DNA from: Campylobacterales bacterium
GTDB taxonomy: Bacteria; Campylobacterota; Campylobacteria; Campylobacterales; Sulfurimonadaceae
Direction of reading: 5' to 3'
Assembly: GCA_016938735.1 (NCBI GenBank)
Contig: JAFGUB010000009.1
Coordinates: 1 to 64,000 of the forward strand
Length of the DNA: 64,000 nucleotides
How positions within the stretch are numbered: the first letter of the stretch is position 1; each line of letters begins with the position of its first letter. Both the position numbers and the translations under genes were made by a program. The notes beneath the pieces are model-generated. The model had not been told where the DNA came from. It did not search any database and saw only the letters and a program-made list of their open reading frames with translations. Below are positions 11,193 to 15,562 of this stretch, piece after piece.

Positions 11193-12440
11193 ATGTTTGA
11201 TCTTGATTTAATCATCACTTTTGCAATAATGGCCTTGCTTTTTTTACGACAAATTGCCATTTATAAAGAGCCCGGAAAAATCAATTATACCCCGCTGCTT
11301 TTAGGCATTGGTGCGATCGGTTCGATGAGTCATATTTTGCTTCATCCCGAGCACAACAATATCGCGGTTCTTTTGCGAGAAGCACTGCTTCCTTTGCTCT
11401 TTGGATTGCTACTTTATCTGATTATGAATGTGCTGCATCAAACCCAAAAAGGGCTTCAACAAGCGCAGCATGATCTAACGCTTAGATCGGTGGCGGAACA
11501 GTTTGAAGAGATCAATAAAAATACTCAGCACACAGATATACGTTTGAGATCCCTGCAGCAGATGGAAGAGCAGATTGCCAAAACCATGGAGAAGTTTATC
11601 TCTATCGACTTCTCGGCATTAAAAAGTATTGAAACGAATCAAGTGGCTTTTTTTGGAAAATTTGAGGTCCTTTTTGAGCAGCAGCAAGAGGTGCTCAAAA
11701 GCTTTGAAAATTTCACCAACCAGAAGATGCCGGATGTTGATGCGGTGATGCATCGCCATATCGATCTGCTTCGTATTGCAGAACAAGACCACTACAAGCA
11801 TCTACAAAAGGGATTTTCAACCCTGATTGAAGCGCAAAAGGGTTTGAACGATGCCTTTGAACGGATGGCCGATAAAGCGCCGTCTGTGCAGTTGGATGAA
11901 GGGAAGCTCAAGGAGATCGTACTTAAAACCGATACCCTATTACAGCAGGTAGTGAATGACTTCGAACGTCAGATGATCGCTTTAAGGGCGCAGAGTGAAG
12001 GGATCGCTACGGCGATGGCGGAGAGCGATCATCTGATTACGACGATACGGACCCAAGAGCAGGAGATGCTTTCGCAGATGATTGCGGGTGCCAAACAGTT
12101 GCAGCATCTCTGGACGCAATCAGATCGATTACAAACTATCTATGCGCCGATCGAGCAGCTGGCGGGGCGAATGGAGCGCATTAGAGAGGATTATGCCGCT
12201 TCGAAGCTGCGGCTGGACATGCTCACCGATTCCCTGCAGAGTATCGACACCTTTCAGTTTGAGAAGATTCGATCGCATATAGAGTCGTTGACACAGACCC
12301 TCTCAGAGCGTATCGACGCCTCGCTCTCTGAGCTGCACGAGCACTATAATATCGCGCAAAAGGATATCACCAAGACGGTACAAGAGCTCTCAACTAAAGC
12401 GCGTCTTTCACGAGGCTACGGCGAGGATCACTCGGCGTAG
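11193..12440 (+). CDS. Membrane-anchored coiled-coil protein, unknown function
   Basis: 415 aa. Three hydrophobic segments lie in the first 85 residues (about 4-24, 32-50, 60-82), followed by a long cytoplasmic region rich in Gln, Glu and Leu that is predicted helical and coiled coil (about 90-400). The architecture resembles chemoreceptor or RmuC-type proteins, but I see no MCP hairpin tip or nuclease motif. A GAGGA ribosome site precedes the ATG. It faces the small coiled-coil gene across an 87-base divergent gap, and its end overlaps the leftward protease gene by 13 bases. Confidence 0.75.
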   Translation: MFDLDLIITFAIMALLFLRQIAIYKEPGKINYTPLLLGIGAIGSMSHILLHPEHNNIAVLLREALLPLLFGLLLYLIMNVLHQTQKGLQQAQHDLTLRSVAEQFEEINKNTQHTDIRLRSLQQMEEQIAKTMEKFISIDFSALKSIETNQVAFFGKFEVLFEQQQEVLKSFENFTNQKMPDVDAVMHRHIDLLRIAEQDHYKHLQKGFSTLIEAQKGLNDAFERMADKAPSVQLDEGKLKEIVLKTDTLLQQVVNDFERQMIALRAQSEGIATAMAESDHLITTIRTQEQEMLSQMIAGAKQLQHLWTQSDRLQTIYAPIEQLAGRMERIREDYAASKLRLDMLTDSLQSIDTFQFEKIRSHIESLTQTLSERIDASLSELHEHYNIAQKDITKTVQELSTKARLSRGYGEDHSA

Positions 12441-13789
12441 GTGCCGTTCATTGCCCCCATAAAGGTCAGCACCAGAGCGTTTAGCCCTGTATAGTCCTCT
12501 GAAGCGAGTGCGTCCACTTTGGTATTGAAATTTTCCAAGGTCAGGGCATCTTCATCGTAGAGCGGTCCCGTATAGCTTTCGATCCAATCAATGTAGTTGT
12601 TGACACGGGTATAGACACCCGGATAGTTGGCTGCGCCGCAGGCTTGTGTGTCGCTACCGCCGAAGCTGACGATACCTCCTAAATAGAAGATTTCGCCTTT
12701 AGCAACGATCAGAGGCCCGCCGCTGTCGCCTTGGCAGGTGTCTTTGCCCCCTTGCATATAACCCGCGCAAAACATGTTTGGGGTGAGTGCCTGATACGAG
12801 GCGTTGCAGGTATCAAAGGGGATGACGGGGAGCATAACCTCTCTGAGCTCATCGGGATAAATGTCGGTTTTGATGGAGATATTCCCCCATCCGGCAGCTT
12901 CCATCGTCGTGCCGTTCGCAGGCAGTGAGGTAGAGAGCCGGATCGGATCGATGCTGTTGATAGGTGTTTTGAGTTCCAGCAGCGCGATGTCGTTATCGAC
13001 GCTCTGCTCATCGTAATGTGGATGACGATAAGCCCTTTGGACCTCCACGCGCGATCCGCCCGAGGCAAGATCATAGCTGCCGTAGTAGATGTGTGAGGGG
13101 GCAGGATCGACGCAGTGTGCCGCCGTTAACACCCACTTCGGTGCGATCAGTGAACCCCCGCAAAAAGGGCTGTAGCTGCTGATTTTTGGATTGTAGTCTT
13201 GCAAAGAGACGATAAAATGCCACTGTGGATCTTGTGATGCGACTGGTGTGCCTTGAATGATCCGTAAAGATGCGGCGTTTGAAGCGGACTGCTGTAGATC
13301 ACTGAGATAAAGGGCCGCTTTGGCACTCTCTTTGGCGATCTCGTAAGCGTGCAAGCCTGCTTCGACGACATCGAAGTCAAAATCGCTGCGGTAGGCGTAG
13401 GATGCGGGGTAACGCTCGCGCAGCGCAGCGCTACCCAGCAGACCCAGCAGTGTCGTTAAAGGAGTGATGTGGGTGTAGCCTTTGGGTGCGCTCATCTGCG
13501 GGGCATAGGGCTCGCCTATGTCGCTTAGCCCATTGGAAGGGGCGATGTCATTGACGCCGCCGCTCACACTCACCTCTTGCGTCAAGGCTGCATTGAAACG
13601 GTACCAGCCTGCTCCTTTGGCCGTATCTTCTTGGGCAATCAGCGAACCTGAGCGCACGGTGGCATCCAGTACATAGCCGTCGCTGATGCGGACGAAATAG
13701 CGTGGAACGTTGCTTGAGGAAGAGCCGCCCGATCCGCAGCCGGTCAGGATTGCAGATGCGATAACACAGAGGGTTGATACCGTTTTCAT
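12428..13789 (-). CDS. Trypsin-like serine protease, lipoprotein zymogen
   Basis: 453 aa from the ATG at 13789. I prefer this start because it gives a clean lipoprotein signal (MKTVSTLCVIASAILTGC, lipid-modified C18), and an AAGGAG ribosome site lies upstream, partly supplied by the palindrome at 13803. A 176-residue N-terminal region of unknown fold precedes a complete chymotrypsin-fold domain. The activation site R176-IIQG matches the trypsin R-IVGG pattern. The triad is H225 (LTAAHC), D267 (DNDIAL) and S356 (GDSGGP). D350, six residues before the serine, predicts cleavage after Lys/Arg. Expected location is the outer membrane or cell surface. Cysteines flank H225 and S356 as in animal-type trypsins. 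Confidence 0.92.
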   Translation of the reverse strand: MKTVSTLCVIASAILTGCGSGGSSSSNVPRYFVRISDGYVLDATVRSGSLIAQEDTAKGAGWYRFNAALTQEVSVSGGVNDIAPSNGLSDIGEPYAPQMSAPKGYTHITPLTTLLGLLGSAALRERYPASYAYRSDFDFDVVEAGLHAYEIAKESAKAALYLSDLQQSASNAASLRIIQGTPVASQDPQWHFIVSLQDYNPKISSYSPFCGGSLIAPKWVLTAAHCVDPAPSHIYYGSYDLASGGSRVEVQRAYRHPHYDEQSVDNDIALLELKTPINSIDPIRLSTSLPANGTTMEAAGWGNISIKTDIYPDELREVMLPVIPFDTCNASYQALTPNMFCAGYMQGGKDTCQGDSGGPLIVAKGEIFYLGGIVSFGGSDTQACGAANYPGVYTRVNNYIDWIESYTGPLYDEDALTLENFNTKVDALASEDYTGLNALVLTFMGAMNGTYAE

Positions 13790-13802
13790 AATAAAATTCT
13801 CC

Positions 13803-13812
13803 TTACATGTAA
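13803..13812. repeat. TTACATGTAA copy at a gene junction
   Basis: Perfect copy. On the minus strand it encodes the last codons Tyr-Met-stop of the membrane protein at 13803-14195, and its continuation (TAAGGAG) forms the ribosome binding site of the protease gene. One copy thus supplies a stop codon and the next gene's Shine-Dalgarno sequence. Confidence 0.92.
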
Positions 13813-14195
13813 AGTGCGACAAAGAGCATCGGCGGATAGATCAGCAGCGGAACATAAGGCAGGTAGTTGCCCAGAGGGGTGAGTAGCATCAGGGTCATCT
13901 TCTGTGAAAGCCGCCGTTTGATGAACACCTGCTCGATGAGCACGATTTTGGTAGCGATATCAAAGGTTTTCACAAAAAGGATGACCCCAAGCAGCGGCGA
14001 GAGTCCCTGTTCCAACACCAAAAAAATAACAAAATAAAAAGTTGGATGCATCAGCAAAAAGAGTACAACGCTGCGTGCATAATAGCGGTGCATACGCAGC
14101 AACATCCCCATCATCGAATCGGCTTTTTGCCATAGAATCTCATAAGACTCCAGCGCAAAATAGATGGCGATATAGATCCATAAAAGTGTATTCAT
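13803..14195 (-). CDS. Small integral membrane protein, unknown function
   Basis: 130 aa with four predicted membrane helices (about 3-18, 40-60, 62-80, 103-128). No family recognised. Its start overlaps the stop of the HD-GYP regulator by 4 bases (ATGA on the minus strand), so translation is probably coupled. The C terminus Tyr-Met-stop is encoded entirely by a TTACATGTAA palindrome. Confidence 0.78.
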   Translation of the reverse strand: MNTLLWIYIAIYFALESYEILWQKADSMMGMLLRMHRYYARSVVLFLLMHPTFYFVIFLVLEQGLSPLLGVILFVKTFDIATKIVLIEQVFIKRRLSQKMTLMLLTPLGNYLPYVPLLIYPPMLFVALYM

Positions 14196-15562
14196 GCAGC
14201 TTGTTCGGTTGATAATCGGTGCAAAATAGCGGTGAAGCGGTTGATGTGCTTGAGAAAGAGGCGTACCAGTTTAGGATCAAAGGCTTTCCCGGACTGCTCT
14301 TGAATGTAGCTTAAGACGTCATGCATCATCCAAGGCTCTTTGTAAACCCGGCGATTCATCAATGCATCAAAAGTATCGACCAGTGCAACAACACGGGCAT
14401 AAAGGGGAATATCCTCTCCTGCAAGCGCACAGGGGTAGCCCGTACCGTCGAAATGTTCGTGGTGGGCATAGGCGATATCGATGGCGATACGCTCTTTTTT
14501 CGGATCGGATTTAAACGCCTCTTCTAAAATCTTTTTGCCGTAGTTGGCATGGGTTTTGATGATCTCAAACTCTTCAGGCGTGAGTTTGCCGGGTTTGCCT
14601 AAAATGGAGTCGGAAATGGCGATTTTTCCGATGTCGTGCAACGTAGCCATTTTGCCGATCATCCGCGCCTCTTCTTTTGACGCCCCTAGAAGCTGAGCCA
14701 TCAAGGCGGTGTATTCACTGATACGGCGGATATGCGAGCCGGTTTCGGCACTTTTGTATTCGGTCACTTCGCAGAGAACATGAATAATGTCGTGTTCGAA
14801 ATGTTTTTTGACCTGATTAAAGATTTCGATGTCGTCAATATTTTGATAGATACGTGCATAAAATTCGTCGCGGGAGAAGGGTTTGGTGATGTAGTCGTTG
14901 GCCCCCTCTTTGAGAAAGCGGCTGGTGGCGTACGAGCCTGTATCGCTCGAGAGGGCGATGATGGCCATCTCTTTTTTGTTGTGTTTCCGCCGGACGCGGC
15001 GGGTGAGCTCCAGCCCGTCCATGATCGGCATGTGATAGTCGGTGAGGATCAGCTCGATATCGGGGTGCTCATTGATGATGCGCAGTGCCGCTTCGCCGTT
15101 GGCGGCTTCAAAGATGCGGAATTGATGCATCGCCAGATTATTTTTCAGATAGAATCGATAGGTGAGTGAGTCATCCACAATCAGCACCTTTTTGTGCCGA
15201 TTGGCCTCAAGCTGCAGGAGCTTTTCGACGACGTAAATAATGTTGTCATAGCGCTCTTTGAGGACGTAGTCGATAATGTTGGAGCTCTCAAAAGTGTCGC
15301 GCAGCACTTCGTCCATATCGGCAGTGAAGATGATGGGAGCGATGTCGTAGCGGTTGACGAGTGCGACGATTTGACCGTCGTTAGCATCGGGTAGGTGCAG
15401 ATCGGTGATGGCAAAATCGTAGGTGTGCTGCCGCAACAGTGCCTCTGCCTCGGCGTAGGTGGCGGCGATGTCGTAACGAAAATCGGTATATCGATCCATC
15501 AGTTCGCTGATGATACGGCACAACATTCGACTGTCTTCGACGATCAGCACACGAATTTTCAT
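14192..15562 (-). CDS. Response regulator with two receivers and HD-GYP phosphodiesterase domain
   Basis: 456 aa. Receiver 1 (about 1-120) has VEDSR and the phospho-acceptor region ITDLHLPD; its usual terminal lysine is in LKERY rather than KP. Receiver 2 (about 123-245) is canonical, with IVDDS, LTDYHMPIMDG and TKPFS. The C-terminal HD-GYP domain has HDIGK and the full HHEHFDGTGYP signature, which supports real c-di-GMP hydrolysis. RpfG-type proteins of this layout control motility and biofilm. It heads a leftward group with the membrane protein and perhaps the protease. Confidence 0.94.
   Translation of the reverse strand: MKIRVLIVEDSRMLCRIISELMDRYTDFRYDIAATYAEAEALLRQHTYDFAITDLHLPDANDGQIVALVNRYDIAPIIFTADMDEVLRDTFESSNIIDYVLKERYDNIIYVVEKLLQLEANRHKKVLIVDDSLTYRFYLKNNLAMHQFRIFEAANGEAALRIINEHPDIELILTDYHMPIMDGLELTRRVRRKHNKKEMAIIALSSDTGSYATSRFLKEGANDYITKPFSRDEFYARIYQNIDDIEIFNQVKKHFEHDIIHVLCEVTEYKSAETGSHIRRISEYTALMAQLLGASKEEARMIGKMATLHDIGKIAISDSILGKPGKLTPEEFEIIKTHANYGKKILEEAFKSDPKKERIAIDIAYAHHEHFDGTGYPCALAGEDIPLYARVVALVDTFDALMNRRVYKEPWMMHDVLSYIQEQSGKAFDPKLVRLFLKHINRFTAILHRLSTEQAA

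What the first reader, a model, noticed from the sequence alone, without database searches (positions are those of the whole stretch)
12428..13789. Animal-type trypsin zymogen displayed as a bacterial lipoprotein
The protein has a lipobox cysteine, a 176-residue pro region, an Arg-IIQG activation site, an intact triad with the Asp before the active Ser, and the S1 Asp six residues before it. All elements of a trypsin-like zymogen are present, which is unusual in Campylobacterota. The N-terminal domain is unassigned. It suggests surface proteolysis, perhaps of host or neighbour proteins, with self- or trans-activation.
Basis: partly seen in the sequence, partly recalled or inferred. Interest (0 to 1): 0.52.

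Follow-up and report, generated by a model that had tools for sequence, protein, structure and literature searches.

The report
Trypsin zymogen on secretion-linked lipoprotein
A Campylobacterota bacterium encodes a standard trypsin-type protease built into a lipoprotein whose two end pieces come from a secretion-system gene cluster, which suggests that the inactive enzyme is carried to the cell surface and switched on, and perhaps let go, by one cut.

Summary
In detail: the minus-strand gene at 12428-13789 encodes a 453-aa lipoprotein with an Arg176|Ile177 activation site, an intact His225/Asp267/Ser356 triad and the S1 Asp350. The protease domain is an ordinary bacterial S1A trypsin. All Campylobacterota copies form one clade (100/99 support), apart from the animal trypsins. 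It is rare in the phylum (2 of 397 sampled genomes).

The new point is the "unassigned" N-terminal domain. With the short C-terminal tail it is the lipoprotein module of a type II secretion (T2SS) surface cassette. Homologues without protease sit directly after gspI/gspJ in this genome, in relatives and on Nitratiruptor plasmids. The post-lipobox residues CGSGGSSS match the Gly/Ser sorting motif of T2SS-exported lipoproteins in Acinetobacter. A sister genus fuses the same trypsin clade to a different cassette module.

Best reading: a T2SS-exported, lipid-anchored zymogen, activated by tryptic cleavage. The anchor is on the propeptide and no cysteine ties it to the protease, so activation should also free the enzyme from its lipid. 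Export, activity and release are untested. It is a new variant of a known kind.

The parts
12428..13789 (-). gene for the 453-aa lipoprotein trypsin zymogen (stop codon included)
13739..13789 (-). lipoprotein signal peptide, residues 1-17
   Evidence: sequence MKTVSTLCVIASAILTG before Cys
13736..13738 (-). lipobox cysteine Cys18 (LTGC)
13715..13735 (-). Gly/Ser-rich P2'-P8' residues GSGGSSS, matching the T2SS lipoprotein sorting motif described for Acinetobacter baumannii
   Evidence: PMC12802150
13289..13693 (-). N-terminal cassette domain, residues 33-167, shared with T2SS-cluster lipoproteins
13259..13264 (-). activation site Arg176|Ile177
12575..13261 (-). S1A protease domain, residues 177-405
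13115..13117 (-). catalytic His225
12989..12991 (-). catalytic Asp267
12740..12742 (-). S1 specificity Asp350
12722..12724 (-). catalytic Ser356
12431..12547 (-). C-terminal tail, residues 415-453, ending FMGAMNGTYAE, resembling the tails of T2SS-cluster lipoproteins
   Evidence: E = 2.2e-6
13799..13802 (-). GGAG ribosome-binding-like site, 9 nt before the start codon and directly after the upstream stop codon
   Evidence: sequence printed
13803..14195 (-). 130-aa membrane protein, probably co-transcribed upstream gene; homologous gene upstream in G022
14192..15562 (-). response regulator with receiver domains and HD domain, first gene of the presumed operon
11193..12440 (+). 415-aa convergent downstream gene, overlapping the end of the protease gene; homologous gene in G022

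Best explanation
The gene makes a bacterial S1A trypsin zymogen carried by the lipoprotein module of a Campylobacterota type II secretion cassette. Steps shown from sequence: lipoprotein signal; Gly/Ser-rich residues after the lipid cysteine; an N-terminal domain and a C-terminal tail that also occur, without protease, in lipoproteins encoded next to the T2SS genes; a complete trypsin domain with Arg|Ile activation site. Steps inferred: the protein is acylated, exported as inactive zymogen through the T2SS secretin and anchored outside by its N-terminal lipid; it is activated by cleavage after Arg176, by itself or by the second, secreted trypsin of the same genome; cleavage separates the protease plus tail from the lipidated N-domain, because no disulfide can hold them together, so activation also releases the enzyme from its lipid unless the tail or N-domain holds it non-covalently. 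Its likely job is Arg/Lys-specific proteolysis at or near the cell surface, for feeding or for trimming surface proteins of the cassette.
For: T2SS in the same genome on contig C53: GspC above its NCBIfam cut-off, GspD with Secretin, Secretin_N and N0 domains, GspE, GspF, GspH- and GspK-like pseudopilins. Profile of 11 protease-free cassette lipoproteins finds the window protein at E = 1.2e-36 (best domain) and none of 80 named-locus trypsin ORFs or 200 shuffles. Tail profile E = 2.2e-6, best of 500 shuffles 0.39. N-domain lipoprotein lies right after the gspI/gspJ-like genes in 7 genomes of 4 genera and on 2 Nitratiruptor plasmids. Gly/Ser-rich P2'-P8' (>= 4) in 3 of 11 predicted lipoproteins in 346 kb of this genome: the target and the two T2SS-cluster lipoproteins; the motif is that of T2SS-dependent lipoproteins (PMC12802150). 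The sister genus fuses the same trypsin clade to another cassette module, E = 5.8e-22. VesB, a trypsin-like T2SS substrate of Vibrio, is exported as zymogen and autoactivates on the surface (PMC6219818, passages). No Cys in the mature propeptide besides Cys18.
Against: No export, acylation, activity or release was measured. The protease gene is not in the T2SS cluster but on another contig. The gene at the gspN position has no detectable sequence homology to GspN (hhalign probability 4.7%; PF01203 absent). The related G186 protein lacks the Gly/Ser motif (CGTQDAQK) and G001 has only 4 of 7. Two of the 9 trypsin-bearing genomes of the family had no GspC match, though they are the least complete (65% and 74%). 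GspC itself is common in the family (134 of 228), so co-occurrence alone says little. Two complete g17 genomes have the T2SS without an adjacent N-domain lipoprotein. The tail profile used tails picked by eye and does not find the plasmid lipoproteins. The N-domain fold is unknown: low-confidence models.
Confidence: 0.62

Rival explanations
1. The protein is an outer-membrane lipoprotein that faces the periplasm and does housekeeping proteolysis there, in the way of a lipid-anchored HtrA; the shared N-domain is only an inherited lipoprotein shell and the T2SS is not involved.
For: The protease gene is not in the T2SS cluster. A lipobox alone does not prove surface exposure. N-domain-like stretches occur weakly in many lipoproteins of the family.
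Against: Gly/Ser sorting motif and strong N-domain matches are confined to the cassette lipoproteins and the lipoprotein trypsins in the sample. A sister-genus trypsin is fused to another cassette module. An unregulated trypsin in the periplasm would be harmful (inference); an HtrA-like protease is already present.
Confidence: 0.22
2. The trypsin was acquired from an animal host and acts on host proteins.
For: Best solved-structure matches are vertebrate trypsins; trypsin is rare in the phylum.
Against: All 14 Campylobacterota rows form one clade at 100/99 and the two animal trypsins lie elsewhere. Structure databases are rich in animal trypsins. Many bacteria carry trypsins related to it (34-43% identity outside the phylum). 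No AU test was run.
Confidence: 0.03
3. The N-domain stays bound to the protease after activation cleavage, by non-covalent contacts or through the tail, so that the active enzyme remains on the surface; there is no release. (A variant of the best explanation that differs only in the last step.)
For: N-domain and tail occur together also in protease-free lipoproteins, so they may pack together; the related surface trypsin VesB stays cell-associated, by another anchor (passages of PMC6219818).
Against: No interdomain disulfide is possible: the propeptide has no cysteine besides Cys18. No structural evidence for packing (N-domain pLDDT mostly under 60).
Confidence: 0.4

Closest known systems
VesB / VesC of Vibrio cholerae (T2SS-secreted trypsin-like proteases; structures 4lk4, 6bqm)
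   Same: S1A trypsin domain, Arg|Ile zymogen activation, T2SS context, surface-associated life; weakly grouped with the Campylobacterota clade in the careful tree (65/92); zymogen and surface facts from PMC6219818 (passages).
   Different: VesB is held by a processed C-terminal GlyGly-CTERM; here the anchor is an N-terminal lipid on the propeptide and there is no GlyGly-CTERM, so activation should separate enzyme and anchor.
T2SS-dependent surface lipoproteins (PulA of Klebsiella, InvL and others of Acinetobacter baumannii)
   Same: Lipobox signal peptide followed by a Gly/Ser-rich P2'-P8' motif (CGGGSSSG and the like, against CGSGGSSS here); T2SS in the genome.
   Different: None of the lipoproteins listed in that paper's Table 1 is annotated as a protease; recognisable GspN not found here; different domains.
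Protease-free N-domain lipoproteins of the Campylobacterota T2SS cassette, including Nitratiruptor plasmids pNitYY0918_PLS and pNitYY0826_PLS
   Same: Same N-domain and similar post-lipobox residues (plasmid sequences printed); in the chromosomal ones also the tail.
   Different: They carry Ser-rich stretches in place of the trypsin domain; the plasmid cassettes encode a separate S8 peptidase.
Vertebrate pancreatic trypsinogens
   Same: Fold, triad, S1 Asp, activation chemistry.
   Different: Not sister in the trees; long lipidated propeptide domain instead of a short one; no acidic run before the activation Arg (sequence LSDLQQSASNAASLR; the acidic run of vertebrate trypsinogens is recalled).

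Membership tests
S1A trypsin (PF00089, chymotrypsin fold) | profile match above the curated cut-off | tested here: met
   192.5 bits, cut-off 20.6
S1A trypsin (PF00089, chymotrypsin fold) | His/Asp/Ser triad, Asp before Ser, S1 Asp at Ser minus 6 | tested here: met
   His225, Asp267, Asp350, Asp355, Ser356
S1A trypsin (PF00089, chymotrypsin fold) | Arg/Lys | Ile-Ile/Val-x-Gly activation site | tested here: met
   LR176|I177IQG; RIING or RIIQG in all 12 Campylobacterota rows of A1
S1A trypsin (PF00089, chymotrypsin fold) | proteolytic activity after Arg/Lys | not testable with these tools
   no assay
bacterial lipoprotein | signal peptide with lipobox and Cys | tested here: met
   MKTVSTLCVIASAILTG|C
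T2SS-dependent surface lipoprotein | Gly/Ser- or Asn/Asp-rich P2'-P8' motif | tested here: met
   7 of 7 residues Gly/Ser; the 8 other non-cassette lipoproteins in the sample have at most 3
T2SS-dependent surface lipoprotein | T2SS in the genome | tested here: met
T2SS-dependent surface lipoprotein | GspN | tested here: inconclusive
   conserved 172-179-aa gene between gspM-like and gspC, but hhalign probability 4.7% and no PF01203 hit
T2SS-dependent surface lipoprotein | loss of surface exposure without gspD | not testable with these tools
   experiment needed
GlyGly-CTERM protease (VesB type) | C-terminal Gly/Ser motif, hydrophobic helix, basic end | tested here: not met
   C-terminus is LNALVLTFMGAMNGTYAE, acidic end
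animal trypsin | grouping with animal trypsins in a tree | tested here: not met

The most novel reading that the evidence does not exclude
A bacterial T2SS surface cassette arms itself with exoproteases by domain fusion, in at least two ways with S1A trypsin. In the window lineage the lipid anchor sits on the activation propeptide, so one tryptic cut both switches the protease on and sheds it from the cell: a self-releasing surface zymogen, whose active copies could set off neighbouring copies.
Probability: 0.33. Interest if true: 0.68.

Novelty: new variant of a known kind. Interest (0 to 1): 0.5.

Why it matters
It gives the unassigned N-terminal domain a context: a T2SS cassette with a PMT-type O-mannosyltransferase, found in several Campylobacterota and on small Nitratiruptor plasmids, for which my paper searches found no description. 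If right, it is a surface zymogen whose activation cut is also its release cut, unlike VesB, whose anchor survives activation. It also offers a case for testing whether the T2SS lipoprotein sorting motif known from Acinetobacter works outside Pseudomonadota.

Tried and rejected
Animal origin: rejected by two trees. Mobile element or phage origin of the protease: no near match in plasmids or phages (best places under 60% identity). GspN by homology: not shown. N-domain by Pfam: nothing; by solved structures: only weak, repeat-like matches to designed Pizza proteins, taken as chance. N-domain fold: single-sequence AlphaFold2 failed (mean pLDDT 33.8); with trypsin homologues only the protease part was confident. 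A shared C-terminal signal 'NP[AS]VLMYLLN' was followed for the second trypsin: only 2 matches in the genome, in two nearby genes, so not a general signal, and absent from the target. The idea that trypsin replaces the S8 peptidase of the Nitratiruptor cassette: not supported, as S8 peptidases occur in 19 of 22 genomes checked, with and without trypsin. Promoter and terminator scans gave little more than shuffles do (5 against 3.4, sd 1.9, and 5 against 3.0, sd 1.5). Taxonomy below phylum was not settled; no named collection at hand allowed a 16S comparison.

Rows dropped: 2 of 80 named loci (L061, a copy of a G026 row; L108, no GDSGG motif); one search used 51 of those 95 rows, one of 12 chosen lipoproteins (L059_920) gave no slice. 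In one search the 10 tails were chosen by eye; G186 (L018) did not match the profile. Alignment A2 used 35 of the 80 named loci.

Full report
WHAT IS THERE. The gene lies on the minus strand, 12428-13789, 453 codons. Residues 1-17 form a lipoprotein signal peptide, Cys18 is the lipobox cysteine (LTGC), and the next seven residues are GSGGSSS. Residues 33-167 form a domain with no Pfam or NCBIfam name. The activation site is Arg176|Ile177; the triad is His225, Asp267, Ser356; the S1 residue is Asp350. PF00089 matches at 192.5 bits. The best solved relative is the trypsin 1a0j. With 35 homologues AlphaFold2 gives most of the protease part a pLDDT over 90, but a poor N-domain; Foldseek returns kallikrein, factor XI and trypsin. 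The 415-aa gene downstream and the 130-aa gene upstream are both kept around the 74%-identical orthologue in another species of the genus. In the window the 130-aa gene ends 13 bases before the start codon, with GGAG between, and it overlaps the end of a response regulator with HD domains, so the three are probably one operon (co-transcription is inference).

THE PROTEASE. They are rare in Campylobacterota: 2 of 397 evenly drawn genomes at E <= 1e-10. In the window's own family 9 of 228 genomes have a match over the trypsin part (my reading of the match table): G000, G022, G001, G002, G024-G027 and G186. In the careful tree all 14 Campylobacterota rows form one clade (100/99) apart from the two animal trypsins; a wider quick tree of 95 rows agrees. 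The clade lies weakly (65/92) with gammaproteobacterial rows that include VesB and VesC. So the protease entered or arose in this phylum probably once, from other bacteria as far as the tree can say, and then diversified; no test of one clade against another was run. This genome has a second, secreted trypsin with a short propeptide on contig C47.

THE N-TERMINAL DOMAIN AND THE TAIL. The window protein's N-domain also matches two Ser-rich lipoproteins in its own genome, at C53, 43% and 39% identity. These sit in a T2SS cluster: T2SSF, T2SSE, Secretin with GspD N0 domain, GspC (TIGR01713, 103.4 bits, cut-off 101.6), GspK- and GspH-like pseudopilins, then the lipoprotein, a PpiC-like gene, a small lipoprotein, the second N-domain lipoprotein and a 448-aa unassigned exported protein. 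The GspD score, 333.9, is just under its NCBIfam cut-off of 351.35. A profile from 11 protease-free lipoproteins finds the window protein at E = 1.2e-36 (best domain) and also G022, G001, G002 and, weakly (1.7e-6), G186; none of 80 named-locus trypsin ORFs and none of 200 shuffles does better than 0.7. A tail profile from 10 lipoproteins matches 4 of 5 lipoprotein trypsins (2.2e-6 for the window; best of 500 shuffles 0.39), not G186; the tails were chosen by eye and the plasmid lipoproteins are not found. In g2 the trypsin is followed by a Ser-rich linker and then this tail, the same layout as the protease-free lipoproteins.

THE CASSETTE. An N-domain lipoprotein lies directly after the last pseudopilin-like genes in 7 genomes of 4 genera: G000, G221, G222, G223, G025, G026, G029. 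In two complete g17 genomes the T2SS is there without it. Strong N-domain matches (E <= 1e-20) are in 10 of 228 family genomes, all in g1, g2, g10 and g17, and weaker or partial ones in others; in the phylum sample 6 of 397. For pNitYY0918_PLS the T2SS and cassette genes match those of C53 nearly gene for gene (GspE 71%, GspD 52%, GT2 63%, PMT 49%, surface protein 37%). The Ser-rich linkers are therefore candidate O-glycosylation targets (inference).

SECOND FUSION. In genus g10 the trypsin has no N-domain but a 140-aa C-terminal domain. That domain recurs at the end of a 649-aa protein encoded between the N-domain lipoproteins and next to the surface protein of the g10 cassette (E = 5.8e-22; locus). 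The Nitratiruptor S8 peptidase shares its C-terminal part with a large protein of the C53 cassette (36%, E = 4e-22). Proteases have thus been joined to cassette modules more than once. I take this as the best indirect evidence that these trypsins belong to the cassette's secretome.

EXPORT SIGNAL. In A. baumannii, T2SS-dependent lipoproteins carry a Gly/Ser- or Asn/Asp-rich stretch at P2'-P8', needed but not sufficient for surface transport (PMC12802150: abstract, sections 5, 7 and 11, and part 1 of section 10 read). In 346 kb of this genome a simple predictor finds 11 lipoproteins; only 3 have four or more Gly/Ser there, namely the window protein (7 of 7) and the two cassette lipoproteins (a stricter first version found 6, with the same 3). 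G022 and G002 also have it, G001 has 4 of 7, G186 has 1. The paper ties this route to GspN. The gene between gspM-like and gspC is conserved but shows no detectable homology to GspN, and PF01203 finds nothing in the genome. This point is open.

MECHANISM. VesB is exported as zymogen by the T2SS, autoactivates after outer-membrane translocation and stays on the surface through a modified C-terminus (PMC6219818, passages). The window protein should work alike up to activation: P1 is Arg, the S1 residue is Asp, and no acidic run guards the site. But its anchor is on the propeptide. The mature propeptide has no cysteine besides Cys18, and the protease part has six, which fit three internal disulfides (pairing is inference). 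After cleavage nothing covalent joins enzyme and lipid. Activation therefore means release from the lipid, unless the N-domain or the tail holds on. Only one Lys/Arg, Lys424, follows the protease domain, so the tail offers few tryptic sites.

VERDICT. Observation confirmed; 'animal-type' not supported; lipoprotein zymogen supported; surface display likely through a T2SS cassette; substrate unknown. Papers: I found no description of this cassette or of lipoprotein trypsins in Campylobacterota in the searches (of the papers listed there I read passages of PMC10092412 and PMC10045233, which mention T2SS genes only in expression lists); subscription papers are mostly not in that library.

Noticed in passing
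L009 2468-3676 and 4173-4979 (own genome C47): Second trypsin (268 aa) and a neighbouring CSLREA-type protein both end in NP[AS]VLMYLLN; the G022 relative ends NPSILLYLLN and g10 small trypsins end similarly. A possible shared C-terminal signal.
   Followed up: partly
L041 from about 4422, + strand (G022:C233): 711-aa protein that joins an HExxH metallopeptidase-like part, a Ser-rich linker and an S1A trypsin.
   Followed up: no
L184 and L185 (Nitratiruptor plasmids pNitYY0918_PLS, pNitYY0826_PLS): Small plasmids carrying a T2SS surface cassette with PMT mannosyltransferase and S8 peptidase, largely collinear with the chromosomal C53 cassette of the window's genome.
   Followed up: partly
L172 2392-3738 (own genome C53): 448-aa exported protein with no Pfam match, conserved in the cassettes (37% to Nitratiruptor); a candidate surface-layer or fibre protein of the T2SS.
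   Followed up: partly
L145 6559-7098: Conserved 172-179-aa membrane-anchored gene between gspM-like and gspC; candidate GspN analogue without detectable sequence homology to GspN.
   Followed up: partly
L145 13651-14403: PpiC-type prolyl isomerase-like gene repeatedly next to the N-domain lipoprotein; may be its chaperone.
   Followed up: no
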